From contig JADZCJ010000123.1 in NCBI GenBank assembly GCA_020851635.1, positions 1 through 58,099 of the forward strand: 58,099 bases of DNA, read 5' to 3'. Under the pieces are notes generated by a model that was not told the origin of the DNA, searched no databases, and saw only the letters and a program-made list of their open reading frames with translations. This document shows positions 30,715-50,767 of the stretch, in pieces. Source of the DNA: Anaerolineae bacterium. Lineage in GTDB: Bacteria > Chloroflexota > Anaerolineae > UBA4142 > SHND01. The position numbers were made by a program, and so were the translations under genes. Position 1 is the stretch's first letter, and each line of letters starts with the position of its first letter.

Positions 30715-30720
30715 TTTCTC

Positions 30721-32193: not shown

Positions 32194-32194
32194 C

Positions 32195-32280
32195 GCAACA
32201 ACATGATGAAATTGCCTAGTCATGCGATGACGCGCGAGTTATAAAACCGGATACTCCACTACGCAATCTCATGTTGTTGC
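32195..32280. repeat. 86-bp element bounded by a 12-bp inverted repeat
   Basis: GCAACAACATGA (32195-32206) is exactly complementary to TCATGTTGTTGC (32269-32280), spacer 62 nt; a further TTGC/GCAA pair extends the stem past a bulge. It directly follows the stop of the sugar transferase, as the 29191 element follows its gene. Confidence 0.5.
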
Positions 32281-32294
32281 ACTACTAGGTGCTT

Positions 32295-32322
32295 TTGCGC
32301 TGCACCAGTTTTGACGTATAAT
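32295..32322 (+). promoter_or_regulatory. Promoter of the Wzz/BY-kinase gene
   Basis: TATAAT at 32317-32322 is a perfect -10 box. The -35 candidate TTGCGC (32295-32300) lies 16 nt upstream and is weak. Transcription from about 32329 would leave a 50-nt leader before the ATG at 32379, which has AAGGAG at 32368-32373. Confidence 0.55.
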
Positions 32323-32378
32323 TTGGCGCGTTGTCCGCAAATCAAGATTTGTGGGCGCATTTCGAGCAAGGAGTTGGG

Positions 32379-33980
32379 ATGGAATTAAGACAGTATCTTG
32401 CCGTACTGCGTAAATGGTTGTGGCTCATTCTGCTTGTTGGAATTGTGGCAGGCGCTGCCAGTTACTATGCCACCAGCCAGCTGCCCAGGTTGTATCAAGC
32501 AACCGCCAAGGTAATGGTTGGAGAGAGCTATCAAAAGGTCAATCCAACTGCTGGTGACATTACAACCGGTTCTGTGCTTGCTGAAACGTATACCCAACTG
32601 GTCAAAACTACTGCCGTCTTGAGCGCCGTACGGCAAGAGCTGGGCACCAACTTGTCCGTTGGCGAGTTGCGCGGGCAGGTCAATGCCAACACCATTCAAC
32701 GCACACAATTCATCGAAGTTCGCGCCACCGATACTGACCCCCGCCGCGCGGCAGCCATCGCCAACGCCGTCGCCAATCAATTGACCCTGCTCGGGCCGTC
32801 CTCTTCCAACCCCGACCTCGCCAAACAGCGTGAATTTGTGCGCGGACAGATTGCGGAACTTGAAACCAAGATCAACACTTCCGAGGCAGAGATCGCCGAG
32901 CTCGAAGAATCAATCCAGGCGACCACCAGCGTCCGCGAAGCGACGGACAAGCGCGCCGACATTGACCGCTTGCGCAGCCAGATCGCGCAGTATCAGCAAA
33001 ACTACACCCAGTTTATAAATTTTCTCGTCCCATCATCACAAAACACCCTTTCCATTCTGGAACCCGCAGAGCCGCCCTCCGCGCCCTTTTCGCCAAACCT
33101 GGTCCTCAATGTTACCCTTGCCGTCGCGATTGGCATGCTTCTGGCAATCGCAGTGGTTTTTCTGATCGAATATCTCGATGATACGATCAAAAGCAAAGAG
33201 GATATTACACGGGTCCTGGGCGCTTCGACGCTCGGAGAAATCGGAGTGATGCGCGGCAGGAACGACCGGCTCATCACCGCCGCCGAACCGCGGTCGGCAA
33301 ACGCAGAAGCGTATCGCATACTTAGGAGCAATATTAGCTTTTCGTCGGTTGACAAGCCCATCGAGACAATTTTGGTTACCAGCGCCAGCCCCAGCGAGGG
33401 CAAAAGCATCACAGCGGCGAACCTGGCTGTCACCATGGCGCAAGCCGGTTACCGGACCGTGCTGCTGGACTGTGACCTGCGAAAACCGACACAGCACAAG
33501 ATCTTTAACCTTTCGAATGATGTTGGGCTGACCAATTCGTTGTTGGCTCATGCAAACCTGAACAGTTTCATACGACCCAGTCGTGTCGAGAACTTGCGAA
33601 TCCTGACTGCAGGTCCCTTGCCCCCAAATCCCGCAGAACTGCTTGGCTCGCGGAGCATGAGCAATGTGATTGGTTTGTTGCGCAACGAGGCAGACGTGAT
33701 CGTCATTGACAGTCCTCCTGTCCTTGCCGTCACCGACTCGGCAATTCTCTCGCGCATGGCAGATGGCGTCCTGTTGGTCGTTGACAGTGGCAAAACCAAA
33801 CGCGAGTCTGCCCAGCGCGCACAAGAAGCGCTGGACAAAGCCGGAGCGCGCTTGTTGGGAGTCGTAATCAACCGCATGCCAACCAAGGGCGGTTACTATG
33901 CTTACAACAGCAAGTATTACTCGACCGGCAGCGAACCGTCCGCGGGACGTTCGACGGCGACAAAGCCCAGTTCCAGTTAA
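32379..33980 (+). CDS. Wzz-BY-kinase fusion: chain-length determinant/tyrosine autokinase
   Basis: The 533-residue protein combines a Wzz-type chain-length domain with a bacterial tyrosine kinase, as in Wzc and Gram-positive CapAB fusions. Seen: a first membrane helix (residues ~13-33), an extracytoplasmic domain with a predicted coiled coil (~150-220), a second helix (~240-265), Walker A SASPSEGKSITAANLAV from residue 335, Walker A' VLLDCDLRKP, Walker B VIVIDSPP, and a C-terminal Tyr cluster (GGYYAYNSKYY) for autophosphorylation. It controls polymer length and export through phosphorylation cycles. An upstream TTG/GTG extension to 32331 is rejected in favour of the ATG with AAGGAG. A terminator hairpin follows. 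Confidence 0.92.
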   Translation: MELRQYLAVLRKWLWLILLVGIVAGAASYYATSQLPRLYQATAKVMVGESYQKVNPTAGDITTGSVLAETYTQLVKTTAVLSAVRQELGTNLSVGELRGQVNANTIQRTQFIEVRATDTDPRRAAAIANAVANQLTLLGPSSSNPDLAKQREFVRGQIAELETKINTSEAEIAELEESIQATTSVREATDKRADIDRLRSQIAQYQQNYTQFINFLVPSSQNTLSILEPAEPPSAPFSPNLVLNVTLAVAIGMLLAIAVVFLIEYLDDTIKSKEDITRVLGASTLGEIGVMRGRNDRLITAAEPRSANAEAYRILRSNISFSSVDKPIETILVTSASPSEGKSITAANLAVTMAQAGYRTVLLDCDLRKPTQHKIFNLSNDVGLTNSLLAHANLNSFIRPSRVENLRILTAGPLPPNPAELLGSRSMSNVIGLLRNEADVIVIDSPPVLAVTDSAILSRMADGVLLVVDSGKTKRESAQRAQEALDKAGARLLGVVINRMPTKGGYYAYNSKYYSTGSEPSAGRSTATKPSSS

Positions 33981-34019
33981 GCCAATAGACCACAGTGTTG
34001 TTACAGGATTGACTCGGCA

Positions 34020-34055
34020 GCCGATGCGGGACTAGATTCGCATCGGCAATCTTTT
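34020..34055 (+). terminator. Rho-independent terminator after the BY-kinase gene
   Basis: GCCGATGCG (34020-34028) pairs perfectly with CGCATCGGC (34039-34047) over a 10-nt loop, followed by AATCTTTT. It ends the kinase transcript before the next gene at 34113. Confidence 0.75.
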
Positions 34056-34112
34056 GTCTCACTCGCAGATTATAGCTTGGCGCTAACTCAAGATAAAGGA
34101 ATTTCAAACGGA

Positions 34113-36533
34113 ATGGATGAATCGAGTCCAATGACTGAACCCCGCCCCGAGCAATCAAGCAACGCTCCCGGACAGGCACACGACGCTGGCAATGGCGAAA
34201 CCCAGCCCACAGCGCCGCGCAATGTTGCCCGCACGATCACATCCAAACGCGTCGTAATTCCCGCAAGCGCAAAGCGTACTATCCAGACTCCTTCTCCCCC
34301 GGTTGCAGAACCCGTCACAGAAAAGTCGTCCGCGCCTGCCGAATCGCTCGCACCCGTCGAATCGCCTGCGCCCGCCGAATCGCCTGTTCCTGTATCCGGA
34401 ACCGGAACGCGAGCGCCTTTAACGCCACCTCCGCATGATACCGCGCCGGAGCTCCCCACCGAGCCGATAGTGTCCGGCACTCCGACAATTACATCATCCG
34501 CGGACTCGCCCATACCGCACGCTCCGGTCGCAGCAGATGGCGCAGCAAAAATCGAACCGGCTCCCATCGTCATCCCGCCACAATCGGCACAAGCCCAAGA
34601 CGCTTCCGCATCCAAACCCGCCCTCAAGACTCCCAAGACCGCCGTTGCGCCGCCGACGAGCAGCGGTGTCAAAGCGGGCGACATGCCTTACACTCCGTCG
34701 CCCTCCAACTTTACGCCGCTCCCGGTCGTCGAGACACCGCACAAACGCCGTTCCCTGGAATGGCTGCTGTGGGCGGGCGCGGCGCTCTTGCTGATCATTG
34801 CGGCGATTGTCATTGCGCCCTTGCTCTTTCCGGACCTGTTGCCCGGCGCTCTGCTGCCCGGTTCAGTGCCGACCCTGGCTGCCTCCACACCTACCGAAAT
34901 TGCCATCGTCCAACCCACCACCTCAACATTACCGCAACCCACCACGACCCAGCTGCCAACCGGCGCCGCGACGAATGCGCTTGTCATTCCCACCAACGCG
35001 CCCTTGATCATCCCAACTCCGCCGGAGAACGCTTCTCAGCTATCACTCTTGGCAGATGCAGCTTTGACCGGATGGTTTGCCCAGGATGAAGAAACGCCGC
35101 ACTATGGCGATGATAATTTACACGCCGGGACATTTCAAGGCAGAAATTTGTCGAGTGTCCTGCAGTTCAACTTGCGAAATCTGCCGCAGGACACCAAGAT
35201 ATTGTATGCTGCACTCGAACTGACGGGGCGCGATGCCAGTCGTCTGGGTGCAGACGGCGAATGGCAGATGGAATTGCTGGAGAACACGCTCGACACAGAT
35301 TGGTTTGCCTCGACTCCAAAAGACCTGGCGGCAGCCAAATCGCTTGGTAAAATCGGAGATTCTATCAACCCCACAGATGTTGCCGTCGGTCGCATCAACC
35401 ACTTTATTCTGAGCGAGAGCGAACGCCAAATGCTCGAGCAACAGTTCAAAAACGGCACTGCGGTTTTCCGCCTGCGTGGTCCAAGCGGCGGCGAGGACGA
35501 CCTGTTTACTTGGGAATCGGGAGCCAGCGGCTCGGCGTTGAGCGCCCCGACCCTGCATCTGGTCGTCGAGCCGGGCACCTATGTCATTGTCACCAATACG
35601 CCGGAACCCAAAAACGTTTTGACGGCGGCGGCATACGTCGTGCTCGGCACGGACCAGGCGAAACGGTTCGGCACCCCCACGCGGTTTCCCCCGGGCGTAG
35701 CTACCGCAACTCCGGGTGGCGAAGTCATTATTGTTCCCGCAGAGACCGCCATCGCGCAAAACCAAGAGACCGCAATTGCCCGCGCGCAATTGGCAACTGC
35801 GATTGCGCGCACAACCGGCACGTATACGCCGACCCAGCCCTTTGTCGTAATCTTTCCGACCAACACCCCCGTAGTCATCGCTCCGGAGCGGCTCGCAACC
35901 GCCACGCCCATCCCGCCTGACACTGATCTGTTGACGATTCCGATTGACTATGAACTCTGCAACTGTCAGGGACGCATTCTCGCGCTTTCAAACCGTTACG
36001 GTGGTGAAAAAGCGCCCGACATTATCATGCTCGAGCCGGACGGCGTCGCGCTCGGCAAACTCTCGGGAGACCTGTTCTATAAATTAGCGCTGGCTCGCGA
36101 ACAATATTCCCCTGACCGCAAGCGCCGGTTGATCTATCCGAAAGATTCGAATGGCGTTCAACAAATCGCTTTCGAAAACATCGAGACCGGCGAAATCGTG
36201 TATCTCACCAATTTCCCCAAAGGCATCCAGTATGATGCCGCGTGGTCTCCGGATGGTAATTATGTTGTCTATGTTTCAACCGAACGCGGCAACACCGACG
36301 AAATCTGGGTTTATGATTTTGGGACCGAGACCAGCGCCCGCATTACCGATTCCAGCGAGCTGGGCCAACCTTGGAACAAGCATCCAACGTGGTCGCCTGA
36401 CAGCCAGCAAATCGCTTTCTGGTCAAGCCGCTCGGGCACACGGCAAATCTGGGTCATGAATCGCGACGGCTCCAATCTGAGAAACATAAGCAACAATAAT
36501 TTTACTGAAGAGGGCCCGGTGTGGGTCAAGTAA
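34113..36533 (+). CDS. Membrane-anchored surface protein: Pro/Ala-rich tail, DNRLRE-like domain, TolB-type propeller repeats
   Basis: The 806-residue protein begins with about 205 Pro/Ala/Ser/Thr-rich residues that hold three 6-residue repeats (APAESx). One membrane helix follows (LLWAGAALLLIIAAIVIAPL), then a Thr-rich spacer. The domain at ~305-490 (LLADAALTGWF, YGDDNLHAGTFQGRNLSSVL, QFNLRNLPQDTKILYAALEL) looks like DNRLRE/CBM96-type surface domains. A second Thr/Pro linker precedes C-terminal propeller repeats DAAWSPDGNYVVYVSTERG and HPTWSPDSQQIAFWSSRSG of the TolB/PD40 type. The N-terminus is probably cytoplasmic and the rest outside. The start is the ATG at 34113 after AAAGGA; a TTG at 34077 is open but less likely. 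No enzyme function is apparent. Confidence 0.7.
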   Translation: MDESSPMTEPRPEQSSNAPGQAHDAGNGETQPTAPRNVARTITSKRVVIPASAKRTIQTPSPPVAEPVTEKSSAPAESLAPVESPAPAESPVPVSGTGTRAPLTPPPHDTAPELPTEPIVSGTPTITSSADSPIPHAPVAADGAAKIEPAPIVIPPQSAQAQDASASKPALKTPKTAVAPPTSSGVKAGDMPYTPSPSNFTPLPVVETPHKRRSLEWLLWAGAALLLIIAAIVIAPLLFPDLLPGALLPGSVPTLAASTPTEIAIVQPTTSTLPQPTTTQLPTGAATNALVIPTNAPLIIPTPPENASQLSLLADAALTGWFAQDEETPHYGDDNLHAGTFQGRNLSSVLQFNLRNLPQDTKILYAALELTGRDASRLGADGEWQMELLENTLDTDWFASTPKDLAAAKSLGKIGDSINPTDVAVGRINHFILSESERQMLEQQFKNGTAVFRLRGPSGGEDDLFTWESGASGSALSAPTLHLVVEPGTYVIVTNTPEPKNVLTAAAYVVLGTDQAKRFGTPTRFPPGVATATPGGEVIIVPAETAIAQNQETAIARAQLATAIARTTGTYTPTQPFVVIFPTNTPVVIAPERLATATPIPPDTDLLTIPIDYELCNCQGRILALSNRYGGEKAPDIIMLEPDGVALGKLSGDLFYKLALAREQYSPDRKRRLIYPKDSNGVQQIAFENIETGEIVYLTNFPKGIQYDAAWSPDGNYVVYVSTERGNTDEIWVYDFGTETSARITDSSELGQPWNKHPTWSPDSQQIAFWSSRSGTRQIWVMNRDGSNLRNISNNNFTEEGPVWVK
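34332..34385 (+). repeat. Three tandem 18-bp coding repeats
   Basis: Units 34332-34349, 34350-34367 and 34368-34385 encode APAESL, APVESP and APAESP in the N-terminal tail of the surface protein. The DNA units differ at only a few positions, so copy number could vary between strains. Confidence 0.6.
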
Positions 36534-36561: not shown

Positions 36562-36598
36562 AACAGGCGAATGCGAATTGCATCTCGCCTGTTTTTCA
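36562..36598 (+). terminator. Rho-independent terminator after the surface-protein gene
   Basis: AACAGGCGA (36562-36570) pairs with TCGCCTGTT (36585-36593); an inner ATGC/GCAT pair extends the stem, and the stem runs straight into a T5 tract. It separates the glycan locus from the giant TPR gene. Confidence 0.85.
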
Positions 36599-36777: not shown

Positions 36778-39700
36778 ATGCCTACGTTGATTGACCTCCT
36801 CGATCAGTATCTCTTTTCGGATGCGCCGGGACTTGTTGCCAGAGCAGCGATCCAACGCGCATGGGAATACACGACAGCAAATACCTGGGACAAGCTCTAT
36901 CTCGCTTCTCTCGAGGATGCGCTCAGCGAGGAGCTGCCACATCTGTCCGCTTATTCGGGACCCAACACAAAACGTCCGTCGCGCACCGAATTGGCGCAGG
37001 TGCTTTCGGCAGAACTGGGCGAAGCCGGCGCCACTCTCGCAACCCTTGATCAAAGCAGTCGCGCTTTTTTGACCGAACTTGCGCGCGCCATGCAGAGCCG
37101 GCGGCTTGTCACGATCAACCACCACAACCTGTTCACAGACGAGTATCGTCAGATTCTTTTGAACTTGTTCGATCACGCGCATACTCGTTTCAAATCTGTG
37201 CTCACGCGCAGCGAACCTGCCTACAGCGCCGCGCTTGACACCGCGACAGAGCACGACCTGATTCTCCTCGCAAGTATTTCAAATTACCTGGAACGTCAGT
37301 TTGGCGTAAAACTCGCATCGCTTGGTCCGGGCATGCCGCACGCCGGACCGGTCAGTTCGACTGCATCGGCTGCGGACGCGGCAACTGACATGCTCGACAC
37401 CGCGACGGTTCTGCCGGAAACGCCGCTCACGTCTGAAACTCCTCAAGAGGATTCTACCCTGGAACCTTTAGCTGAAATCAACCCACAATCCGAGCCAACA
37501 GCAGTCAACCCGACTCCTCCCACCGGTCCTCCTTTGCAACCTGCGCCGGAACTGGCGACAAATGAACCTGTCGCGTCCGTTGAACCCCCGGCCCCACAAG
37601 CGGCGGGCGGACACGGAGAGCTCGACATCCCTGTTGTCTCGACGCCCCCAAGCTCGTTTGAACAACCCGCAGACGCCCCTGCTTCTGCTCCTGCCGACGG
37701 TTCACGCGAGATGCCGATTCGACTGCGGGTGCTTCTCGCCACACCCGCTGATGTTCAAACCGAGCGCCGCCTTCTCACCGAACTGATTCGCGAGCTCGAC
37801 ACGCGCGCGCGCGCCCGCTTTGGGCTTGAATTGACGCTTGTCTCTCCGACGGCGCAACAAGCGGCTGAGGGTCAATCGCTTGTTGAATTGGCAGACATCT
37901 TTGTCGGCGTAGTTTGGCTTCAATTCGGCGCGGAATCATTTGTCGGCGCGGACAATGGCGAGGGATACTTTGCCGGCACGCGCAGCGACTTTGCTCGCGC
38001 GCTCGAACAAGGCAGTGGACGGACAGAGGGCTGGCTCCGCACGGTCATTTACCGTTCCATTCGACCGCCGCTCGATCTCTTGCATATGGACGTTTCTGAA
38101 TACTCACGCGTCCAGCAATTCTTTGAACGCGCGGGCGCCTACGCGGGCGATGACCTGGTGCGCGTATATGTGGACTCGTCCGAATTGATCAATGACGCGC
38201 GGGCGCGCCTGGATGCGTGGATCTATAACTATGCGGGCGACCTCGCCTCGACCCTCAGCGATTACGGCAGCAACTCGGCTGCAAATGGGCAGATCGAGGA
38301 CGCGCTCGCCGATTACAAGCAGACGATCACGCTGTATCGCGAACTGGACCGCCCCGAACAGGAACTCGCGTTGTGGCTCCAGGTGGGCGCACTCCAGCAA
38401 AGCATCAACAGCGCGTCATCTGCCGAAGCATATGACACGGCTCTGCGACTCGCCCGGCGGATCGAAGATGATCCCGCAGCCGCGCGGGCGCTGCGCTCAC
38501 TGGGTGCGCTCGATGCGGCTCAAGGACAATGGCGCAGTGCGCTGGACAGATATCATCAAGCTCGCACATATCTACAGCCCGGAGATACAGAATACAGCGC
38601 GCTGCTTTTGGAGCAGATTGACGCCTACGACGCGTTTGGCGAATCTCTGCGGGCGCGCGGCGATTTTGACAGAGCCATTCCCGAATTCAAGAATGCGCTC
38701 GGTATCGCTCAAGAGCTCGGCGACACCGCAGCGCAAACCGTGCTCTGGTCCAAGCTGGGCGCGCTGGCGGCGGAACGCGGCGCGTGGAACGACTCGCTGA
38801 GCGCATACGACAATGCGCTTGCCCAAAGCCCGGACCAACGCTCCGATGCGCGTCTCGCAATTCTTGACGCACAAGCAAACGCACACACGCAGCTCGCTCA
38901 AAAAGCGCGTTCGTCCGGCGATTTGGCAGCCGCTGAGCAAGCATATCAATCAGCTCTGCGCGTCAACGCACAGGGTGCCGGAGACCGTCTGCAGCGCGTG
39001 GCGCTCTTTACCGCGCTCGGCACATTGGCAGCAGACCGCGCCGACTGGACGCGCAGCATTGACGCCAACGAACAAGCGCTCGCTCTTCTCGATTCTCCCG
39101 ACGACGTTGAAAATCGCCGCGCGCTCATGGCGAGCCAGGCGCTCGCCTATCAGGAACTTGGGGCAGAGCAAAGCGCCCGCGGCGATTTTGCGGCAGCGAG
39201 CAGCGCATATCGCGACGCCTTGTCCCTTTATCAAGAACTGGATCGCGCATCCGACCAGGGTGTCGTTTTGCATCATTTGGGCGAAATTGCGTTGCTCCAG
39301 GCTGAGCCCGCCGAAGCGAACGCCTATTTCCTCGAGGCGCTGCCGCGTCTCGAGGGTCTTGCCAACGCGCCGTTGCGCGCCAAATCGCTCCAGAGCCAGG
39401 CGGTGGCGCTGCAAAACATCGGCGACGAACAACGCGCGTCAGGCGAATGGGCACAGGCGGAGATTGCTTTTGTGCAGGCACGCGGCAATCTCGAACAACA
39501 GAACCGCGGCGGCGAGACAGGTCCCCTGCTCTATCGTCTGGGCGTCGTGACCGCAGCACAATCGCGCCTGCCTGAAGCGCTCGCCTATTTCCAGCAAGCG
39601 CGCACCCGGCTGACCGCGCAAGAAGACAATGAAACGCGGATTGAGTCCCTGCGCGCACAGAGTGATGCCTCAAGTCGCTTTGCCGAAATGTATCGCGGCT

Positions 39701-42700
39701 CCGGTGATTTCCAATCTGCTCGGGCGTATTACCGTCAACAATTGGAACTGGCAGAAGAGTTGCAAGATGAGACGCTGGAAGCGGACGCCTATGATTCGCT
39801 CGGGCTTGTCGCGGCGGACCAGGGTGAGTGGGACGATGCCGTTGATTTATACGACCGCGCGCTGGCGCGGCTGCAAGGACGCGACCAAGAAACCACACGC
39901 GCGTTTGCGCAGCGCCACCAGCTCACCGCTTTCGAGAAAATCGGCGAGCGCGAACGCGCCGCGCATAATCTCTCCCAGTCGGAGCTCGCGTATCGTTCAG
40001 CTCTGGCGCTGGCACAATCGCTCGGCGACAAAGAGCGCGAAGCAGACTTGTTATACACCCTCGGGCTTTTGGCAATCGAACACGAGAATTGGGACGAAGC
40101 GCTCGTCAATTTACGCCGCGCCCTGGGCATTTACAATCTGATGCCCGCCGCGCCCAACAAACCCAAAGTCATTTTCGGCATTGGGCGCGCCCAGCGCGGT
40201 CAAAAACAGGCACATTTGAAAGAAACCTTGCAGCAGGCGCAAGCCGGACGCAGCGCTGCGCTCTATTTGTCGGCAGCCGAGCTGGCGCGCGAATTGGGCG
40301 ATCAGCGGTCTGCCGCCGTCGCAGCCCGAGAACTGGGGTCCCTCGCGCTCGAACAGGGCGATTGGGACAAGGCGCTGGTCCACTTTGACGAGGCACTGAC
40401 GGGCTTGACTGCCCCGGAAGACCAGACGCAAAAACAACTTGTCAGGCGCGCCCAACTCCACGCTCGGCGCGAACGCAGTAATCGCGCCCTGCAAAACAGG
40501 CAGTGGGGCAGCGCGGACGCAGACTTGTTTGTTGCGCTCGACCTGGCGCGCGAGGTCCAGGATGCTGACGAACAGGGCGACCTTGTCTACCGTCGTGGGC
40601 TGGTGGCTGCGGGACAGAGACATTGGAATCAGGCGATTGACCTGTATTCAGAAGCGCTGAATCGTTTGCAAGAGAACAATCCCGAACGCGCAACAGTAGA
40701 ACGGGCGCAGGCGCAAGCTTACCAGTCGTTGGGCGACTCGGAACGCGACAGTCAGAACTGGGCGAGCGCAGAAGCCGCTTACTCGCAAGCTCTCGCGCTG
40801 CGTCGCACGCTGAATGACACCGAGCCGCAAACCGCATTGTGCGCGGCGCTTGGAGATGTGGCGATGCGGCAGGGTCGCTGGACCGATGCCATCGCGCAGC
40901 TTGGGGCAGCGCGCTCGTTGGCAGTCGAGCTGGCTGATACCGAACGCGCCGCCGCTCTGGACGCGGAAATTGAACTCGCATCCCGCGCGCTCAAACGACA
41001 AGAGCAGGAAACCATTGAACAGCGCGGAGACGCTTTCCGCGCATCGCACGCTTACGCTCTGGCGCAAACCGAATACGCTGGCGCGCTGGAACTCGCAGAG
41101 GAACTGGAGGAGCGCGCGGCACAAGCCGAACTCAACGCCAAGTTGGGTTTCATTGCGACCGAGACCGGCGCGTTGCGCCAGGCGCTCGCTCACTATCGCA
41201 TCGCGGCGGGCATGTACGATGCGCCGGAAAACGCAGCACAGCGCATTGCGCTTGTCGAATTACAGGCGCAGACCCTGCAAGAATTAGGCAACCAGGCGGG
41301 GACCGACGGCGCATGGCAGCAAGCATTCGAATTCTACTCGCAGGCGGTTGCTCTTTTGGATTTGCCCGCGCAAGCCGCACACCGCAACGAGATTGTCCGA
41401 CTCGAGGCAGTGACCTGTCAGAATCTTGCCGAGAAATTCCGCGACGAGCGCGCGCTGGACAAGGCGCTGGACCAATACCGACGCGCCCAGGGCTTGTATG
41501 CCCTCGTCGGGGCGGAAACCGATCGGCGTGCCGTTGTGGAACGCCAGGCGGAGGTCTTGACCGATCAAGCTCACACCGCGCATCAGACCAACGATTTTGC
41601 GACGGCGCAAATATTATACGGTCAAGCGATCGAGCGCTACAGCGAATTGCAGCAAAGCGACAAGCTGCGCCAGACGCGCGCGGAACAGCTTGTTTCATTC
41701 CAGTCTGCCGGCAGTCAGGCAGCCGATGCCCAAGATATTCCGGGTGCACGGCGGCATTATCGTCAAGCGTTGGGCATTGCCCAGGAGCTGGACGATCAGG
41801 CGACACAGGCAGTCTTGTATCACCGCCTCGGACAACTGGCAGCGCGCCAGTTTGACTGGGAGGCGGCTCTGCTCTCATATCAAGCCGCTCTCGAGCACGC
41901 AGCCAACCGCCCTGAAATTGAATCAGCCGTCCTCGCAGACCAACTCACCGCCTACCAGGAACAAGCCACCTCTCGACGAATTGACCGAGACCTAGAGGCA
42001 GCCGAGTCCGGATATGTCCGTGCATACACAAATGCACAGACTCTCAATGATGCCGCGCGAGCAGGCGAACTCGCATTCTTGCTTGGAACCCTCTCTGCCG
42101 ACCGCGACAATTTTGAAACCGCGCTCGGCTACTATGACCGGGCGCTTGAGCACCTCGCGCCGGGCAACCCACAGCGAAACGAAATCCAACCTTATCGCGC
42201 CTATACATATCAACAACTTGGTGACACTCTGCGCGCGGACGGACAATTCGCCGCAGCCGCTGACGCCTATGCGACTGCTCTTGACATTGCCGACGAATCG
42301 GGCGATGGAACACGCCAGGGACAGGTCTTGTATCGTTTGGGACTTTTGGAAGCAGCACAGGGACGATGGGAGCCCGCGCTCGACGCTTATGCGCGCGCAG
42401 AAACCAGAATTGACCCGGCTGACGCCGAAACCGCCGCCCTTGTCAATCGAGATACTGCCTTTGCCTCTCAGGCGCTCAAACGCGAGCGTCTCGCGGCACA
42501 ATTGGACCTTGCGAACAAGGGGCGCGCCGAGAGCTCGTGGGATGATGCAGCTGCAGCATATCGGAATGCCATGGCGTTCGCCATAGAGCTCGACGAGTCC
42601 GAGCTGCGCGACACGATCCGACGCGACCTCGTCGCGCTCTATGCTGAAAAGGCATTTGCGCTTGGGTCGGACGAACGGTGGGACGCCTCGCGCGATGCCT

Positions 42701-45700
42701 ATCTTGAAAGTTTGCAACTGGCGCAAGCGTTTGATTTTGCCGACGATGTCGCCCAAAGACAGGATGACCTCATGGCGCTCGCCCGCGCCAGCGCGCAAAA
42801 CGGAAACAACCTCTATGCTCAAGCCGAGTGGGATGCCGCCAACGATGCATACAACCGCACCCTGGAATACGCGCGGGAATTTGGCGACGTCAATACTCGG
42901 GCAGTCGCGCTCATGGGCTTGGGCAACATTGCCCAGACTCGCAAGCAGTGGACGACAAGCAAAGAGTATTACGAGCAGGCGCGCCCCCTCTTTGTCCAAG
43001 CAGAGAATACAACTGCCCTCGCCTCTCTGGATACCGGACTGGGCTATGTCAAGGACGTGCTGGCGCGACAGACGCAGATGGCTGACGCCGTCGTAAACGC
43101 CGAGCGCGCGTCACAAGAGGGCCGCTTTGATCAAGCGCAACTCGAGTACCGCACCGCTTTTGGTCTGGCGCGCGAGCTGGACGATTCTCCACAGGCAGCC
43201 CGGTTCGCTGCCGCGGTCGTCGGCGCTTCAGTCGCTCAGGCACACTCGTTCAGGGAACAGGAGGATTGGCTGCAAGCGGAGCGCGCGTCTCGCGAGGCGC
43301 TCGGTGTTGCGCGCGAATTTGACGACGCCGCAGCGGTTCAGGCGCGCCAGACCGACCTCGTGACTCTTGCCGCCGAGCGCGCCAAACAACTCGGAGCGAG
43401 CGATGACTGGAAGGCGAACGAGGCTCTTTATCGCGAGGCGCTGGCGGTGGCGCAGGAATTTGACGACGCACAAGCCATCCGAGCCCGTCACACCGAGTTG
43501 ATTGCGCTTGCCGCCGCGCTGACCGCAGCCCGGCGCAGCAATCAAGACCTGCACGGGGTCAAGCTTGCGGCACAACACCAACTTGATGTCGCGCAAGAGT
43601 TTGGCGACCTTGCCGCACAAGCAGATGCGCTATTCGCCCTGGGCGAGAATGCGCGCGACGCAAATGATCTCGCCACGGCACGCAATTATTTTTTGACGGC
43701 AGCGCAGACCTATGAGCAAGCCGAAGCGCCGCACGGGACCGCCGCGGCGCAGCACGCGCTGAACCAGGTGGAAACGGTCTTGCGGCATCAGGAGCAACTC
43801 GAAAATGCGCTCACAAATGCACAGACCGCACGCACAGCGGGTCGCTTTGATAACGCGGTGCAGGAATACCAAAATGCCCTGACCCAGGCCGATCCATTGC
43901 GCGATGTTCCTGTCCGCGCCGCCACTCTTGTCGCGCTCGCCGAGTTGGCGTTTGAACAGGAGCAATGGCAAAACTCGCTCGATCATTATGCCGCCGCGGG
44001 TTCGCTCTACGATGGACTGGAGCAATCCGGACGCGTCGCGGAATTGGCGCAAGAGCAGGCGCGCGTCACCCGTCGTCTGCGAATGTCACAACGCGACGAC
44101 GCCCGCATACGCGGCGATCAAGCAGTCCAAGAGGCAAATCTCGTCAAGGCGGGGGCAGCATACCGCAAAGGGCTTGAGCTGGCACAACTGCTTGATGACC
44201 CCGCCGGCAGCGGCGCGTTCGAAATATCGTTGGGTCAAATTGCCGCTACCGAGCACCGTCTGGCTGACGCCGCAGAGTGGTACACCGCCGCAGACGCGAG
44301 TTTCTCGCAAGCGCAGGATGAAACACTGCGCGCGACCGCGCGCACACACCTGCTCGCAACCTACACCGCCCTCGGCGATGATTATTCTCATCGGCAAGAT
44401 TGGGCGCTCGCGCACACCAACTATGACCGCGCCCTGCTGGCTGCGCCAGAGACTACCCCGGCGCCTCAAAAGGCGCATCTCTTGACCCGACTCGGCATTG
44501 TGGCAGCGCTTCAAAACGCGCATCACGACGCAGTCAGCTATTTTGACCGCGCCCTCGACACCCTCGATACAGACGACCTGACAAATCAACGCGGCTCCAT
44601 TCTGGAACAGCGGGCGCGCGTCTGGCAGGATTTGGGCGATTCGGAAATGGATTCCGGGAACATGCCCGCCGCCCAAGATGCGTATTCGCACGCGCTCGCG
44701 GATGCCCGGACACTGCGCCAGGATTCTCAAGTCGCCCAAGTCTTGCACAGTCTTGGGCTTGTCCGCGGCGCTCAAGATCAATGGCAAGACGCATTGCAAG
44801 CGCATCAGGAATCATACGACCTGATTCAAGATGCCGACCTTCCGGAAGCGAAATTGAGCATTCTTGTCTCGCTTGCCGAGAGCAAGGCGCGCGTCGGCAA
44901 GACAGACGCTGCCCGTCAGGATTATCAGACCGCTTTGGCAATCGCCAATAGTCTGTCCGATACATCTCAAATTGCCGATATCGAATTTGCGCTCGGAGAA
45001 ATCGCGGCAGACCAGGAACGTTGGCAAGAGGCATTGACTCATTACGAGACCGCTCGCGCGGGCTTTGCCGCGCCCGCGGGCGAGGCGCAGTTGCTCAAGC
45101 TCAACGCACAGCAAGCCACGGCATATGCGCGGCTCGGTGAAATTCAATATGGAGAAGGGCGCTGGTCCGAATCTCAAATCGCCTTTTCGCGCGCGCTCGA
45201 GCTCGACAGCGCGGCCGGACGCACCGACCGCGACGGCGTTCTGTATTATCGCCGGGGAAACGCGATGGCGGCGCAAGAGAAATTTGCCGAGGCGATCGCT
45301 GACTATGATCGCGCGAGCGTGGCGCTGGCGGACGACGATACGGCGCTCCGCGACCGCACCATCGCGCAGCTTGCGTTTGCCCTCCAGCAACAAGGCAAAC
45401 GCGCCTACGATGCCGGTGACCTGGATCACGCCGAAATGGCATTCACACGGGCGCGCAAGATGGCGGAAGCGTCCGACAATTTTGACCAGGTGGCTAATCT
45501 CTGGTTCCGACTCGGCACAACCTATCGCTCACAGGCGCGTCACGACGAGGCGCTTGCCGCATTCCGCCGCGCGTATGAATTTGACCGCATGGACGGCAGC
45601 GCGATCCAACAGACCGAGATCTCGGAAGCGCTCGCAGAACGACTGCTCCAGCGCGGCTTGAGCGCACTCGAGTCCGAAAACCAGGCACAGGCGGATAGCG

Positions 45701-48700
45701 AGCTCGTCGAGGCGCTCGATTATGCCAATCGAGCCAACAACCCGCAGCTCGTCGGCTCGACGCTCGAAGCGCTTGCCGGGTCCGCACAAGCGCAGGGAGC
45801 CCTTCCGGAAGCGATTGATTATTATGCCCGCGCGGGCAAAACCTTTGCGGTCATCGAGGACACGGACCGCTGGCGCATTGTTTCGCAGCAGCAAGCAGTT
45901 TTGCTCCGCCGATGGGCTGACCGGCAGTTCGAGGCGAACGAATTTGCGGATGCAGAGAATCTCTACCGCCGCTCGAACCTGCTTCAACAGGCCGCGGGTG
46001 ACGAATCGTCTCGCGGAGAAAACCATCTGGCTCTGGGGCGCGCGCTCCTGGCACAAGCCAGGTTCGAGGACGCGCTTGGCGAATTTGAGCAGGCGGACGC
46101 GGCATTTGACATCTCGGCGCCGGAACGTCCCGAGCTGTTGAATCTCTACGCCGACGCGCTCGAGGCACACGGCGCGCAGGCGCTTGGCATTGACGATCTG
46201 GAACGGGCACAGAGCGATTACACACGCGCCGCCGCATATCGTGACGAACTGGGTCAGCACACGCGCGCCGGTTTGGCTTGGCAGCAATTAGCAGACATTG
46301 CCGCGTCCAGGCACGAGCTGGCAAACGCGATACACGCAAATGAGCAGGCGTTGGCGCGACTCGATGCCCCCGAAACCGCCGAGATGCGCCGCCCGGTCCT
46401 CCGACAGCAGGTTCGCATCCGGGCTGAGGTTGGCGCGCAACAACAACGCGAGGGTGATTGGACAGGCGCGAACGAGACTTTACGTCGCGCGCTCGCTCTC
46501 AGCCAAGAACTGGGCGATCTCGAGGCCGTGGCGCATTTGTACCGAGCGCTCGGCTCACTTGCAGGCGCACAGGAACACTGGGATGAGGCGGCAGCAGAAT
46601 ATACGCACGCGCTCGATGTGTATGACGAGCTCAATCAACCCCAAGCCCAAGCCGCAACCTGGGCGCAGTTGGGTGACATGTATCGGCAAGCGACCCAATA
46701 TGATCAGGCAGCTGATGCGTTTGAGCAAGCGCGCGTCCTTTACAACCTGACCGGCAAACACCCGGAGGAAGGGGCAATGTGGCTGCGTCTCGGACATGTC
46801 GAGGGTGACCGCGCCGAGTGGGACAAGGCGCTCGACCAATATCAAAACGCGCTGCACTTGTTCAACAACGTCGGCGCGCGCAGCGCCAAGCCGGAGGTGT
46901 ATCGCGCCCTCGAACGCGCCGTGCGCAATGCCAAACTACAAGCGGCTGATCAAGCCGCCGCGCAGGGTGACTATGAACTCACCGAGAGTCGTTTCGCCGC
47001 CGCCGAACAAGCGTATCGCGATGCGCTCGCGCTGTATCAAGAAGCGGACGAACGGGTGCTGCAAGCGCAAATGCAGAACCAGATCGGCATAGCATTGGAA
47101 AAGCAGGCGCGCGATGATGACGCCCTGACCCATTTCCGCGCTGCGCTCAAGGGCTTTGAACAGATGGACATTCCCCAAGCCCAGGTCAGCGTCCTCGCCA
47201 ATATTGGCGCGGCACGGTGCGGCAATCAGGAATGGAACCAAGCCGAAGCATCATACCGCCAGGCGTTGGCAGTGAACGCGCCGCTCAACGATCCTGCGCG
47301 CACAGCCGAATTGTACAGTTCGCTGGGGATGGTGCGGGAAGCGCAGGGGGATTGGGAAAGCGCCTTTGACCATTATCGCCAAGCCGTTGCCATCTACCAG
47401 TCTCTCGAATTGAATGACGCGCGCGTACAGGCAGAACTCGACATGCTGCGAGCGCGGCGTGGCGCGCACGAACAAGCGGAGCAGGAACACCTGCGTCGCC
47501 TGGAGCAAGCGCGCACAACCGGCAGTCTGGCAGAAGCCGGCGAGATTCTCAACACTCTCGGGCTGCTTGCCGCCGAGGACGGACGCTGGTCGCACGCGCT
47601 CGAATATTACCGTGAGGCAGTTGCGAATTTCGAACATCTCGAAGCGGAAACAGAGGCAGACGAGGTGTGGCGCATTGCCAAGGGCACCGTCTTGAACAAC
47701 ATCGGCGACGCGTCACAACAGATTGGCGCGTGGAACGACGCCGACTCTGCCTATACCCGCGCGCTCGGACTTGCGCGCGAAATCGGTGACCGCGAAAGCG
47801 AAGCACTCTTGCTGTCGAATCTCGGCATCGCCGCTCAAGCGCAGCAACAGCTGCCCCGCGCGCTGGACCTGGATCTTCAGGCGCTCGAATCTTTCAACAA
47901 CCTGGGTGATGACACGCCCCGCGCCGACTTGTTGGAGCGGATCGGCGACTTGCATGCGCAGCTGGACCAGTCCGCGGCGGCAGAAGCTTCCTATGGGCAA
48001 GCGCTCGACTTGGCGCGACAGGCGAATGAGAGCGAGCGTATCAGCCGCCTCTTGAAACAAATGGGGATGCTTGCTCAAGCTCGCGGCGCGGACACAGAGG
48101 CGCTGGGCTATTATCAAGAGGCGTTGACCCGCTCGATCGAATTGGAACGCGACCACGAACAACAAGACCTCTTGATGCGGCAGGGAGCATTGTATTTAGC
48201 AAGCGGACAACTGGATGAGGCAGAGCGCGCACACCGAGCAGCATTGACCCTGGCGACCGCGCACGGTGACAATGCCGCGCAGGCGGCTCTCCACACACAG
48301 TTGGGTCAAGTCGCCATCGCCCAAAGCGACTGGCAGACGGCGATAGCTGAATTCCAGGCGGCGCTCGCGCTCGACGAGAAATTCGCTTCGCCGCTTGATC
48401 AGGTACGCGGGCTGGAGAAAATCGGACAGGCGCATGTCGAGTTGGGCGAATTTGGCCAGGCGGACGCGGCTTATTCGAGTGCGCTCGACCTTGCCGCACA
48501 GACCGACGCCGTCAAGCCTTACCCGCTCTGGCTCGCGCGCGCCGCCCTCGCGGAAAAACAAAATCGCTGGCAAGACGCCTTTGAATATCTTGGGAACGCG
48601 CTCAAACTTCCAAGTCCCGAAGCCAGCCCCGCGTCGCGGGTTGACCTGCTGTTCCGGCACGGGGAAGCGGCAATGCTTGCTCACAATTGGAGCGCGGCGG

Positions 48701-49689
48701 ATACCAGTTTCAATGACGCAATGGAGTTGGCAAATGCCTCGCATCTGCGCGTCATGTATGGTTGGGGCATGAATCGTCTCGGGCTGCTCTCTCAGGCACA
48801 GCGCAGCTGGGAAGATGCCCTCGAAAACTTTCAGGAAGCGATCGAGATTTTCCGGCTCAATCAACAGCCGCTTGCGGAAGCGCATGTCCTGAACAATATT
48901 GCGCGCTTGAAACTCGAAACCAACGATCCGAGCCAGGCGGACCTCTTTTCGCAGGCGGCGCTTTCGATTGCCCAGGCATTCGGGAGCAATACCGAGGCAT
49001 CACGCGGGCTATATACGCGCGGTTTGGCGGCAATAGAGACTCTGGAGTTTGACTCGGCGCGCCAGCTGTTGAATCAGGCAATCGCGACGGACCCGGGAAA
49101 TTGGGCGGCGCAGCTCCAGCTCGGAAACGCCCTGCTGGCTGCCGGCGCAGTTGCAGAAGCGACCCGGCAAGCCGAGACAGGGCTGGGACAATTCCCTGAT
49201 TGGGAACTGGGCGCACAGACACAGTTGACGATCGCAGCGCTGTATCAGGATGACACCCGCCCCTTCAAAACCAATCTCAAGCGCGCCCGGGCGCTGCTCC
49301 GCACAGCCACCGCGCGGCGGAACGTCTCTCAAGAGATGCTCGACGCCGTCGAGTCACTCTTGCGCGCGCTCGAAGGTCACGCCGAAACCGCCCTGAATGA
49401 ACTCACGGCAGAGAATAAACCCGTCCTGCCGATAACGTTTGAATCCCGGCGTTTTGTCAAGACCGCGCTCCTCGCGCTCTCTACCAGCCCGCGCCGTTTC
49501 AAAGACAAGCAATCGCTCGTCAACTATTTCTCGGTGCCGCCACAGGGTCCGCGCAAGGGTGGTCGCAAGCGCGGCAGCCACGCGCCCGACTCTTCCGCGT
49601 CGTCATCTTCCCGGCTTGATAATTCTGCGACAGACGACGAGCCGGGTCAGGCCGCAGACGCCTCTGACGACAGTCTATTCCAACAGTAA
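36778..49689 (+). CDS. Giant 4303-residue DUF4062-like/TPR protein
   Basis: Layout: residues ~1-185 form an unrecognised, largely helical domain (MPTLIDLLDQYLFSDAPG at the start). Residues ~186-311 are a Pro/Ala/Glu-rich linker. Residues ~312-470 look like a DUF4062-type domain (RLRVLLATPADVQTERRLLT, ADIFVGVVWLQFGAES, GTRSDFARALEQG, VQQFFERAG). From ~490 to ~4160 there are continuous TPRs, and a Ser/Arg-rich tail ends the protein. No signal peptide, membrane helix or NTPase motif was seen, so it is probably cytoplasmic. Related domain pairings occur in signalling and conflict proteins that use TPRs to bind partners. The frame is open from 36571, but that ATG lies in a terminator stem. The ATG at 36778 has AAGGGG at 36763-36768 and is chosen. 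The function is unknown. Confidence 0.8.
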   Translation: MPTLIDLLDQYLFSDAPGLVARAAIQRAWEYTTANTWDKLYLASLEDALSEELPHLSAYSGPNTKRPSRTELAQVLSAELGEAGATLATLDQSSRAFLTELARAMQSRRLVTINHHNLFTDEYRQILLNLFDHAHTRFKSVLTRSEPAYSAALDTATEHDLILLASISNYLERQFGVKLASLGPGMPHAGPVSSTASAADAATDMLDTATVLPETPLTSETPQEDSTLEPLAEINPQSEPTAVNPTPPTGPPLQPAPELATNEPVASVEPPAPQAAGGHGELDIPVVSTPPSSFEQPADAPASAPADGSREMPIRLRVLLATPADVQTERRLLTELIRELDTRARARFGLELTLVSPTAQQAAEGQSLVELADIFVGVVWLQFGAESFVGADNGEGYFAGTRSDFARALEQGSGRTEGWLRTVIYRSIRPPLDLLHMDVSEYSRVQQFFERAGAYAGDDLVRVYVDSSELINDARARLDAWIYNYAGDLASTLSDYGSNSAANGQIEDALADYKQTITLYRELDRPEQELALWLQVGALQQSINSASSAEAYDTALRLARRIEDDPAAARALRSLGALDAAQGQWRSALDRYHQARTYLQPGDTEYSALLLEQIDAYDAFGESLRARGDFDRAIPEFKNALGIAQELGDTAAQTVLWSKLGALAAERGAWNDSLSAYDNALAQSPDQRSDARLAILDAQANAHTQLAQKARSSGDLAAAEQAYQSALRVNAQGAGDRLQRVALFTALGTLAADRADWTRSIDANEQALALLDSPDDVENRRALMASQALAYQELGAEQSARGDFAAASSAYRDALSLYQELDRASDQGVVLHHLGEIALLQAEPAEANAYFLEALPRLEGLANAPLRAKSLQSQAVALQNIGDEQRASGEWAQAEIAFVQARGNLEQQNRGGETGPLLYRLGVVTAAQSRLPEALAYFQQARTRLTAQEDNETRIESLRAQSDASSRFAEMYRGSGDFQSARAYYRQQLELAEELQDETLEADAYDSLGLVAADQGEWDDAVDLYDRALARLQGRDQETTRAFAQRHQLTAFEKIGERERAAHNLSQSELAYRSALALAQSLGDKEREADLLYTLGLLAIEHENWDEALVNLRRALGIYNLMPAAPNKPKVIFGIGRAQRGQKQAHLKETLQQAQAGRSAALYLSAAELARELGDQRSAAVAARELGSLALEQGDWDKALVHFDEALTGLTAPEDQTQKQLVRRAQLHARRERSNRALQNRQWGSADADLFVALDLAREVQDADEQGDLVYRRGLVAAGQRHWNQAIDLYSEALNRLQENNPERATVERAQAQAYQSLGDSERDSQNWASAEAAYSQALALRRTLNDTEPQTALCAALGDVAMRQGRWTDAIAQLGAARSLAVELADTERAAALDAEIELASRALKRQEQETIEQRGDAFRASHAYALAQTEYAGALELAEELEERAAQAELNAKLGFIATETGALRQALAHYRIAAGMYDAPENAAQRIALVELQAQTLQELGNQAGTDGAWQQAFEFYSQAVALLDLPAQAAHRNEIVRLEAVTCQNLAEKFRDERALDKALDQYRRAQGLYALVGAETDRRAVVERQAEVLTDQAHTAHQTNDFATAQILYGQAIERYSELQQSDKLRQTRAEQLVSFQSAGSQAADAQDIPGARRHYRQALGIAQELDDQATQAVLYHRLGQLAARQFDWEAALLSYQAALEHAANRPEIESAVLADQLTAYQEQATSRRIDRDLEAAESGYVRAYTNAQTLNDAARAGELAFLLGTLSADRDNFETALGYYDRALEHLAPGNPQRNEIQPYRAYTYQQLGDTLRADGQFAAAADAYATALDIADESGDGTRQGQVLYRLGLLEAAQGRWEPALDAYARAETRIDPADAETAALVNRDTAFASQALKRERLAAQLDLANKGRAESSWDDAAAAYRNAMAFAIELDESELRDTIRRDLVALYAEKAFALGSDERWDASRDAYLESLQLAQAFDFADDVAQRQDDLMALARASAQNGNNLYAQAEWDAANDAYNRTLEYAREFGDVNTRAVALMGLGNIAQTRKQWTTSKEYYEQARPLFVQAENTTALASLDTGLGYVKDVLARQTQMADAVVNAERASQEGRFDQAQLEYRTAFGLARELDDSPQAARFAAAVVGASVAQAHSFREQEDWLQAERASREALGVAREFDDAAAVQARQTDLVTLAAERAKQLGASDDWKANEALYREALAVAQEFDDAQAIRARHTELIALAAALTAARRSNQDLHGVKLAAQHQLDVAQEFGDLAAQADALFALGENARDANDLATARNYFLTAAQTYEQAEAPHGTAAAQHALNQVETVLRHQEQLENALTNAQTARTAGRFDNAVQEYQNALTQADPLRDVPVRAATLVALAELAFEQEQWQNSLDHYAAAGSLYDGLEQSGRVAELAQEQARVTRRLRMSQRDDARIRGDQAVQEANLVKAGAAYRKGLELAQLLDDPAGSGAFEISLGQIAATEHRLADAAEWYTAADASFSQAQDETLRATARTHLLATYTALGDDYSHRQDWALAHTNYDRALLAAPETTPAPQKAHLLTRLGIVAALQNAHHDAVSYFDRALDTLDTDDLTNQRGSILEQRARVWQDLGDSEMDSGNMPAAQDAYSHALADARTLRQDSQVAQVLHSLGLVRGAQDQWQDALQAHQESYDLIQDADLPEAKLSILVSLAESKARVGKTDAARQDYQTALAIANSLSDTSQIADIEFALGEIAADQERWQEALTHYETARAGFAAPAGEAQLLKLNAQQATAYARLGEIQYGEGRWSESQIAFSRALELDSAAGRTDRDGVLYYRRGNAMAAQEKFAEAIADYDRASVALADDDTALRDRTIAQLAFALQQQGKRAYDAGDLDHAEMAFTRARKMAEASDNFDQVANLWFRLGTTYRSQARHDEALAAFRRAYEFDRMDGSAIQQTEISEALAERLLQRGLSALESENQAQADSELVEALDYANRANNPQLVGSTLEALAGSAQAQGALPEAIDYYARAGKTFAVIEDTDRWRIVSQQQAVLLRRWADRQFEANEFADAENLYRRSNLLQQAAGDESSRGENHLALGRALLAQARFEDALGEFEQADAAFDISAPERPELLNLYADALEAHGAQALGIDDLERAQSDYTRAAAYRDELGQHTRAGLAWQQLADIAASRHELANAIHANEQALARLDAPETAEMRRPVLRQQVRIRAEVGAQQQREGDWTGANETLRRALALSQELGDLEAVAHLYRALGSLAGAQEHWDEAAAEYTHALDVYDELNQPQAQAATWAQLGDMYRQATQYDQAADAFEQARVLYNLTGKHPEEGAMWLRLGHVEGDRAEWDKALDQYQNALHLFNNVGARSAKPEVYRALERAVRNAKLQAADQAAAQGDYELTESRFAAAEQAYRDALALYQEADERVLQAQMQNQIGIALEKQARDDDALTHFRAALKGFEQMDIPQAQVSVLANIGAARCGNQEWNQAEASYRQALAVNAPLNDPARTAELYSSLGMVREAQGDWESAFDHYRQAVAIYQSLELNDARVQAELDMLRARRGAHEQAEQEHLRRLEQARTTGSLAEAGEILNTLGLLAAEDGRWSHALEYYREAVANFEHLEAETEADEVWRIAKGTVLNNIGDASQQIGAWNDADSAYTRALGLAREIGDRESEALLLSNLGIAAQAQQQLPRALDLDLQALESFNNLGDDTPRADLLERIGDLHAQLDQSAAAEASYGQALDLARQANESERISRLLKQMGMLAQARGADTEALGYYQEALTRSIELERDHEQQDLLMRQGALYLASGQLDEAERAHRAALTLATAHGDNAAQAALHTQLGQVAIAQSDWQTAIAEFQAALALDEKFASPLDQVRGLEKIGQAHVELGEFGQADAAYSSALDLAAQTDAVKPYPLWLARAALAEKQNRWQDAFEYLGNALKLPSPEASPASRVDLLFRHGEAAMLAHNWSAADTSFNDAMELANASHLRVMYGWGMNRLGLLSQAQRSWEDALENFQEAIEIFRLNQQPLAEAHVLNNIARLKLETNDPSQADLFSQAALSIAQAFGSNTEASRGLYTRGLAAIETLEFDSARQLLNQAIATDPGNWAAQLQLGNALLAAGAVAEATRQAETGLGQFPDWELGAQTQLTIAALYQDDTRPFKTNLKRARALLRTATARRNVSQEMLDAVESLLRALEGHAETALNELTAENKPVLPITFESRRFVKTALLALSTSPRRFKDKQSLVNYFSVPPQGPRKGGRKRGSHAPDSSASSSSRLDNSATDDEPGQAADASDDSLFQQ
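38250..49260 (+). repeat. TPR-coding array with ~85-residue double-repeat period
   Basis: Successive units alternate a TPR of the form LGxxAxxxGxWxxAxxxYxxAL with one of the form LGExxRAxGDFxxAxxxYxxAL. Counting from FGESLRARGD to TQLAQKARSSGD gives about 84 residues, and the next unit is about 88. That predicts about forty double units, or eighty-plus TPRs; the figure is an estimate. At the DNA level the units are clearly diverged, so this is an old expansion, not a recent slippage array. Confidence 0.75.
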
Positions 49690-49704: not shown

Positions 49705-49749
49705 CGCGAATCTTTGCGGACCAGAGTCGCCTTCAAAGATTCGCGTTTT
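49705..49749 (+). terminator. Rho-independent terminator after the giant gene
   Basis: CGCGAATCTTTG (49705-49716) is a perfect 12-bp match to CAAAGATTCGCG (49734-49745), followed by TTTT. It ends 7 nt before the gmhB-like ATG, so that gene may depend on read-through or on a promoter inside the giant gene. Confidence 0.8.
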
Positions 49750-49756
49750 CATTTCA

Positions 49757-50356
49757 ATGACAACGGTAAAGGAACGCGCGCTCTTTCTGGATCGTGATGG
49801 CGTGATCAATGTGAACCTGCCCGATCACGTTCGGTCTTGGGAACAGTTCGAGTTTGAGCGCGGCTCGCTCGACGCCTTGGCGCGCGTCGGCGCAACCGAC
49901 TATCGCGTGATCGTGATCACCAACCAATCCGGTATCGGACGGGGACTGATGAGCCACGAAACGGTCAATGAAATTCACACGCGCATGACCGCAGAAATCC
50001 GACACGTCGGCGGGCGCGTGGATGAGGTCTACTATTGCCCGCATTCGAGTCAGGACAACTGCACCTGCCGCAAACCGGCGCCCGAAATGCTTTTGCGCGG
50101 ACGCGACCGCTATCAACTCGATGTCGGCGCAAGCTATCTTGTTGGTGATTGGGTGGATGATGTGCTGGCAGCGCGGGCGGCCGGGGTCAAACCTCTGCTT
50201 GTCCGCACAGGCAGGGGCGACCGCGCGATTGCCGAGATGCTGACGCGCGAGATTCCGGCGCCCGAGATTTTCGAGAATCTCGCCGCAGCAGTCGAGTGGA
50301 TTCTAGCGCACGAACGGGCGCCACAGGGCACGAGGAGAGAGGCACAAGAAACGTGA
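49757..50356 (+). CDS. gmhB: HAD-family heptose-bisphosphate phosphatase-like protein (GmhB type)
   Basis: The 199-residue protein has the HAD motif FLDRDGVINV with nucleophile Asp12 and Asp14, IVITNQSGIGRG (motif II), the zinc-binding CPHSSQDNCTCRKP and YLVGDWVDDVLAARAAG (motif IV). GmhB removes the 7-phosphate (or 1,7-bisphosphate variant) in ADP- or GDP-heptose precursor synthesis, so it may supply heptose for the glycan; related HAD phosphatases act on histidinol or other phosphates. The frame is open from 49439 inside the giant gene, but the ATG at 49757 gives the family start. Its last codons (QET, stop) lie in the palindrome at 50345-50378. Confidence 0.8.
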   Translation: MTTVKERALFLDRDGVINVNLPDHVRSWEQFEFERGSLDALARVGATDYRVIVITNQSGIGRGLMSHETVNEIHTRMTAEIRHVGGRVDEVYYCPHSSQDNCTCRKPAPEMLLRGRDRYQLDVGASYLVGDWVDDVLAARAAGVKPLLVRTGRGDRAIAEMLTREIPAPEIFENLAAAVEWILAHERAPQGTRREAQET

Positions 50357-50378
50357 CACTTGCGTGTCACGTTTCTTG
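50345..50378. terminator. Bidirectional terminator palindrome shared by two convergent genes
   Basis: The 15-nt arms CAAGAAACGTGACAC (50345-50359) and 50364-50378 are perfect reverse complements around a TTGC loop. Read on either strand, the arm encodes Q-E-T-stop, so both the gmhB-like gene and the response regulator gene end in it. Confidence 0.8.
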
Positions 50379-50735: not shown

Positions 50736-50767
50736 AACGAGTCACTGCGGCACATCACCGGCCAAAT

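What the first reader, a model, noticed from the sequence alone, without database searches (positions are those of the whole stretch)
36778..49689. 4303-residue TPR mega-protein with no NTPase, signal peptide or membrane anchor
A single 12.9-kb frame encodes what I estimate as eighty-plus TPRs behind a DUF4062-like domain. Giant TPR scaffolds of this size are rare. The protein sits alone between two strong terminators, so it is an independent unit and not part of the glycan locus. It could be a scaffold, a surveillance protein or a very large peptide-binding solenoid.
Basis: partly seen in the sequence, partly recalled or inferred. Interest (0 to 1): 0.7.

Follow-up and report, generated by a model that had tools for sequence, protein, structure and literature searches.

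The report
Giant TPR scaffold, degenerate TIR-like head
One genus of uncultured Chloroflexota bacteria carries, at one fixed place in the chromosome, a giant protein that is mostly about eighty repeats of a protein-docking motif behind a head related to immune NAD-destroying enzymes whose active site has been lost, so it is probably a very large cytoplasmic scaffold rather than an enzyme or defence weapon.

Summary
One open frame, 36778-49689, encodes 4303 aa (472 kDa) with about 80 TPR units (residues ~497-4140) and no P-loop or membrane segment. It sits between two terminator-like hairpins.

All six sequenced species of the genus (Anaerolineae, Chloroflexota) carry the gene at the same locus. 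It lies between a polysaccharide operon and a HAD phosphatase-RluD-LspA block. About 390 other genomes of the class lack its head domain. Repeats match in register between species, except for a variable middle (~2090-2560). Codon-position divergence shows purifying selection. The length is not fixed: one species ends near residue 2100.

The DUF4062-like domain belongs to a family reported in a 2026 preprint to be TIR-like NADases. In 6/6 giants the catalytic Glu is Asp, an active-site Arg is Gln/His, and the BB-loop segment is shortened. In other Chloroflexota copies Glu is kept in 20/20 alignable and Arg in 19/21. The first 182 residues are an orphan domain.

Best explanation: a cytoplasmic TPR docking rod with a catalytically dead TIR-like head (confidence 0.55). 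Rivals: a polysaccharide-linked scaffold, or a retired immune sensor. Partners and function are untested.

The parts
36778..49689 (+). giant TPR gene, 4303 aa
   Evidence: orthologues in 6/6 genomes of the genus
36778..37323 (+). head domain 1, residues 1-182: orphan, mostly helical, well conserved in the genus
   Evidence: no Pfam or PDB family; absent from 390 other genomes of the class
37324..37713 (+). Pro/Glu/Ala-rich linker, length varies between species
   Evidence: alignment A1
37717..38235 (+). DUF4062/TIR-like domain, residues 314-486, degenerate active site
37921..37923 (+). Gln382, at the position of active-site Arg976 of TEP1
   Evidence: Q or H in 6/6 giants, R in 19/21 other copies
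37987..37989 (+). Asp404, at the position of the catalytic Glu (TEP1 E1008)
   Evidence: D in 6/6 giants, E in 20/20 alignable other copies
38266..49197 (+). solenoid of about 80 TPR units, residues 497-4140
43045..44457 (+). variable middle of the solenoid, residues ~2090-2560, local repeat duplication and loss
49198..49686 (+). C-terminal helices, then a low-confidence, probably disordered tail (last ~50 residues)
36562..36593 (+). terminator-like hairpin before the gene; a hairpin is at this position in five species
49705..49745 (+). terminator-like hairpin after the gene; a hairpin is at this position in five species
28004..36533 (+). upstream neighbours: two glycosyltransferases, polyprenyl glycosylphosphotransferase, Wzc-like tyrosine autokinase, PD40/TolB-like propeller protein
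49760..50356 (+). downstream neighbour: HAD phosphatase, GmhB-like

Best explanation
It is a cytoplasmic docking rod. About eighty TPRs form one continuous superhelix whose concave groove binds several partner proteins or long extended segments, in the way that LGN/Pins binds Inscuteable and NuMA. The head (orphan domain plus a TIR-like domain that lost its NADase active site) is used for self-association or for anchoring to a partner, not for catalysis. Shown: the domain order, the continuous TPR fold in the modelled part, the in-register conservation, the lost active-site residues, single-copy vertical inheritance in the genus, and flanking hairpins. Inferred: groove binding, the oligomerising role of the head, and the scaffold function.
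For: TPR profile matches along the whole solenoid. AlphaFold2 model of residues 3251-4303: an uninterrupted series of helix pairs, pLDDT mostly about 90. Its best compact structural matches are LGN/Pins TPR domains (TM-score about 0.7-0.8 over about 350 residues). 120-residue windows of two full-length orthologues map to the same place in this protein far better than to other repeats, except in the variable middle. Third codon positions diverge about twice as much as first and second. Positions expected to line the TPR groove are more conserved than other exposed positions against G002 (39% vs 27.5%, p = 7e-4; polar residues only, p = 6e-4); against G003 the excess is weak (p = 0.02) and vanishes for polar residues. 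Catalytic Glu, active-site Arg and BB-loop segment altered in 6/6 giants. Single copy at one locus in 6/6 species.
Against: No partner is known. No phenotype or expression data exist; all genomes are uncultured MAGs. The groove-conservation signal is modest and not uniform. One species has only about the first half, and another lacks about 490 residues, so the full length is not indispensable. The head was modelled with low confidence (mean pLDDT 54).
Confidence: 0.55

Rival explanations
1. Scaffold tied to the neighbouring polysaccharide machinery: the solenoid, especially its C-terminal half, docks the Wzc-like kinase, the priming transferase or glycosyltransferases.
For: The gene follows the same polysaccharide operon in five species. 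The one species without the operon's GT2, priming transferase, Wzc and PD40 genes at this place, and without a close Wzc orthologue elsewhere, has a giant that ends near residue 2100 and no C-terminal half anywhere.
Against: Hairpins separate the two units in all five species. In the exceptional species the head and first half are kept and conserved at 49-55%. It is a single case, and a regional deletion would give the same picture.
Confidence: 0.2
2. Immune sensor: a DUF4062 antiphage protein in which the solenoid senses a phage product.
For: The ordinary DUF4062 proteins of the same order carry NACHT or NB-ARC NTPases and match defence candidate PDC-S60. A preprint shows that a bacterial DUF4062 protein is an antiphage NADase (PMC13174449).
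Against: The catalytic Glu and an active-site Arg are lost in 6/6 giants, and no NTPase follows. The gene is fixed at one locus in every species; the preprint describes DUF4062 genes as patchy and horizontally spread. The head was not found in the plasmid, phage or viral collections.
Confidence: 0.1
3. A retired immune receptor or drifting repeat protein with little present function, kept by chance in a young genus.
For: The length varies from about 1.5-2.1 thousand residues to about 4.4 thousand, the middle is variable, and one species lost the C-terminal half.
Against: Purifying selection along both halves, no internal stops in six genomes, and a strongly conserved head.
Confidence: 0.1

Closest known systems
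DUF4062 TIR-like NADases (bacterial Swarozyc, human TEP1; preprint PMC13174449)
   Same: The TIR-like domain is homologous: a profile made with this protein finds the TEP1 structure 11gz (E 0.003), and the beta-alpha order of the model agrees.
   Different: Catalytic Glu replaced by Asp, the TEP1 Arg976 position replaced by Gln or His, and the BB-loop segment shortened in all six giants; no auxiliary sensor or NTPase as in the family's defence proteins.
DUF4062-STAND proteins of the same order (NACHT or NB-ARC; PADLOC PDC-S60)
   Same: Homologous N-terminal domain.
   Different: They are about 650-1150 aa with an NTPase. The giant has no NTPase, an extra orphan domain in front, and about 80 TPRs behind.
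Human NPHP3 (DUF4062, NTPase, TPR)
   Same: A DUF4062-like domain followed by TPRs (architecture from general knowledge); the preprint found no NADase activity for NPHP3.
   Different: NPHP3 has an NTPase and far fewer TPRs; no relationship beyond the shared domains was tested.
LGN/Pins TPR scaffold
   Same: The best compact structural matches to the modelled solenoid; 40-residue TPRs of the same type.
   Different: LGN has about 8 TPRs and GoLoco motifs; a structural analogy, not a family relationship.
Bacterial giant proteins (survey PMC11573180)
   Same: A very large single-gene product.
   Different: The survey's main bacterial groups are NRPS/PKS and surface proteins, and it cites giant genes as strain-specific; this one looks cytoplasmic and non-enzymatic, and is a core gene of its genus.

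Membership tests
TPR proteins | helix-turn-helix repeats with the TPR signature (L7, G8, A20, Y/F24, A27) | tested here: met
   Pfam TPR_12 1e-141; signature positions G8, A20 and A27 kept at 88-94% identity between species; helix pairs in the model
DUF4062/TIR-like domain family | sequence homology to DUF4062 | tested here: met
   Below the Pfam cut-off alone, but matches to bona fide DUF4062 proteins down to about 1e-14 and a profile match to the TEP1 TIR-like structure
DUF4062 TIR-like NADases | catalytic Glu (TEP1 E1008, KpSwz E97) | tested here: not met
   Asp in 6/6 giants, Glu in 20/20 alignable other Chloroflexota copies
DUF4062 TIR-like NADases | NAD+ hydrolysis | not testable with these tools
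   needs an enzyme assay
STAND immune receptors | P-loop NTPase between effector and repeats | tested here: not met
   no Walker A motif in any giant, no NTPase family
antiphage defence genes | patchy, mobile distribution or defence-island context | tested here: not met
   6/6 species at one syntenic housekeeping/glycan locus; no match in phages or plasmids
surface or secreted giant proteins | signal peptide or membrane anchor | tested here: not met
   no hydrophobic segment above 1.52 on the Kyte-Doolittle 19-residue scale; no dedicated signal-peptide predictor was available

The most novel reading that the evidence does not exclude
A genus-specific class of giant bacterial scaffold, in which an immune-type TIR-like head was stripped of its enzyme activity and joined to a TPR rod of about 80 units with position-specific repeats, organising a cytoplasmic assembly, possibly polysaccharide synthesis at the membrane.
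Probability: 0.3. Interest if true: 0.75.

Novelty: new variant of a known kind. Interest (0 to 1): 0.52.

Why it matters
If it is a scaffold, it is among the longest TPR rods described (to my knowledge; no systematic survey was run), with dozens of potential docking sites kept in register over a genus. It would also be a natural case of an immune TIR-like enzyme domain turned into a structural part, which can be tested directly with the purified head.

Tried and rejected
Artefact or fused genes: rejected by full-length orthologues without stops. Non-TPR repeats: rejected. Recent DNA-level amplification of the whole array: no tandem DNA repeats; only the middle shows recent duplication, in G005. 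Active NADase: disfavoured by the residues. The N-terminal structure model was too poor to use, and its Foldseek matches only reflect the TPRs. No homologue of domain 1 in Pfam, PDB, plasmids, phages or viral contigs. A TPR_12 survey of 199 genomes of the class listed open frames of at most 1529 aa among its best matches, but that ranking favours strong single repeats and misses divergent giants, including this one, so it does not measure how rare giants are. Literature searches for giant TPR proteins found nothing specific.

Full report
Observation. The frame 36778-49689 (+) is open and encodes 4303 residues, 472 kDa, pI 4.7, 19% Ala, 3 Cys. A longer frame from 36571 exists, but the N-terminus MPTLIDLLDQY is conserved in all orthologues, so 36778 is the likely start.

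Repeats. Apart from weak matches to the TPR-like SNAP and RPN7 families, Pfam finds TPR families only (TPR_12 1e-141). An HMM trained on the protein and its relatives gives 85 hits in this protein, 80 above 3 bits, between residues ~497 and ~4140, with spacing mostly near 40 or 46. The DNA holds no tandem repeats, so the array is old. An AlphaFold2 model of residues 3251-4303 shows helix pair after helix pair with pLDDT mostly near 90, and a disordered tail of about 50 residues. The global matches by Foldseek are long TPR scaffolds (Ctr9, SKI3, IFT-A); the compact ones are LGN/Pins.

Relatives. All six genomes of the genus have the gene; the head domain is missing from about 390 other genomes of the class and from viral contigs, plasmids and phages. 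Two orthologues are complete (4200 and 3950 aa). Three are split by contig ends inside the gene. G005 has fragments of 2218 and 2272 aa; G004 has fragments of 1680 and 1964 aa.

In-register conservation. 120-residue windows from the two complete orthologues align best to the matching place here, with scores well above the next best repeat, except around residues 2090-2560. Overall identity is 54% and 45%. Third codon positions differ at 0.59-0.66 and first/second positions at 0.25-0.42 in the two solenoid halves; the middle is relaxed (0.47-0.53 against 0.69-0.72). Local 47- and 146-residue duplications sit in the middle. G004 lacks about 490 residues, matching 1160-1650 here. In G001 the frame ends at a TGA near residue 2100, 80 nt before the HAD gene, and no C-terminal part was found in that genome, which is 93% complete. 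The repeat number is therefore not strictly fixed.

Head. Residues 1-182 form an orphan domain, 53-73% identical to this protein across the genus. A linker of variable length follows. Residues 314-486 are DUF4062-like. A 2026 preprint (PMC13174449) reports that DUF4062 is a TIR-like NADase with catalytic Glu E97 in KpSwz and E1008 in TEP1, and TEP1 arginines 908, 954 and 976 at the active site. A profile of giant and ordinary copies finds the TEP1 structure 11gz as its best PDB match (E 0.003). Taking the first chain residue as 894 puts Arg at 908, 954 and 976 and Glu at 1008, which checks the numbering; this numbering is my inference from the printed alignment. Aligned with it, the giants have Asp at the Glu position in 6/6 and Gln or His at the Arg976 position in 6/6, and the segment between strand B and helix B (BB loop) is shortened. 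Other Chloroflexota copies keep Glu in 20/20 alignable cases and Arg in 19/21. The ordinary copies examined carry NACHT or NB-ARC NTPases. The giant has no P-loop. The head was modelled poorly (mean pLDDT 54), though the secondary-structure order fits a five-stranded TIR-like fold.

Groove. Helix-A positions expected to face the groove (2, 5, 9, 12, 13; general TPR knowledge) are more conserved than other exposed positions against G002 (39% vs 27.5%, p = 7e-4) and less clearly against G003 (51% vs 43%, p = 0.02; not significant for polar residues). This is modest support for partner binding.

Locus. In five species the order is glycosyltransferase, glycosyltransferase, priming transferase, Wzc-like kinase, PD40 protein, giant, HAD phosphatase, then RluD and LspA (the contigs of G004 and G005 break inside the giant, and each half carries its side of the order). 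Terminator-like hairpins lie at both ends of the giant in all five, mostly with different sequences; three species share the upstream hairpin ATACAGAGCTGC...GCAGCTCTGTAT, found once per genome. In G005 only about 35 nt separate that hairpin from the start codon, so a promoter may overlap it or read-through may occur. G001 lacks four of the operon's genes at this place and has no close Wzc orthologue elsewhere, and its giant is cut to about half. That single coincidence keeps a functional link with the polysaccharide genes open.

Interpretation. A cytoplasmic TPR docking rod with a catalytically dead TIR-like head explains the architecture, the constraint and the fixed locus best. Enzyme, surface protein and antiphage weapon are each contradicted by tested features. 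The partners, and thus the cellular role, remain unknown.

Noticed in passing
L101:15743-16957 (G001 contig C204, minus strand): The giant ends at the position matching residue ~2100 here, directly before the HAD gene; the same genome lacks the polysaccharide priming and Wzc genes next to it.
   Followed up: partly
L010:8167-8196, L012:5167-5197, L013:7897-7925: A perfect hairpin ATACAGAGCTGC/GCAGCTCTGTAT occurs once per genome in three species, between the PD40 gene and the giant; in G003 it is interrupted by another hairpin (L008:7740-7830).
   Followed up: partly
window 34077-36533: Pro-rich membrane protein with a C-terminal PD40/TolB-like propeller at the end of the polysaccharide operon; the full-length form was seen only in this genus, shorter paralogues elsewhere.
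   Followed up: partly
L099:10700-11205 (G005 contig C180): Within the variable middle, a 146-residue unit is repeated with 45 of 60 identical residues, a recent duplication; the assembly breaks there.
   Followed up: partly
window 50364-50927: Frame of 187 aa after the HAD gene without a Pfam match; a related frame follows the HAD gene in G002 and G003. It overlaps the RluD-like gene on the other strand, so it may not be a gene.
   Followed up: no
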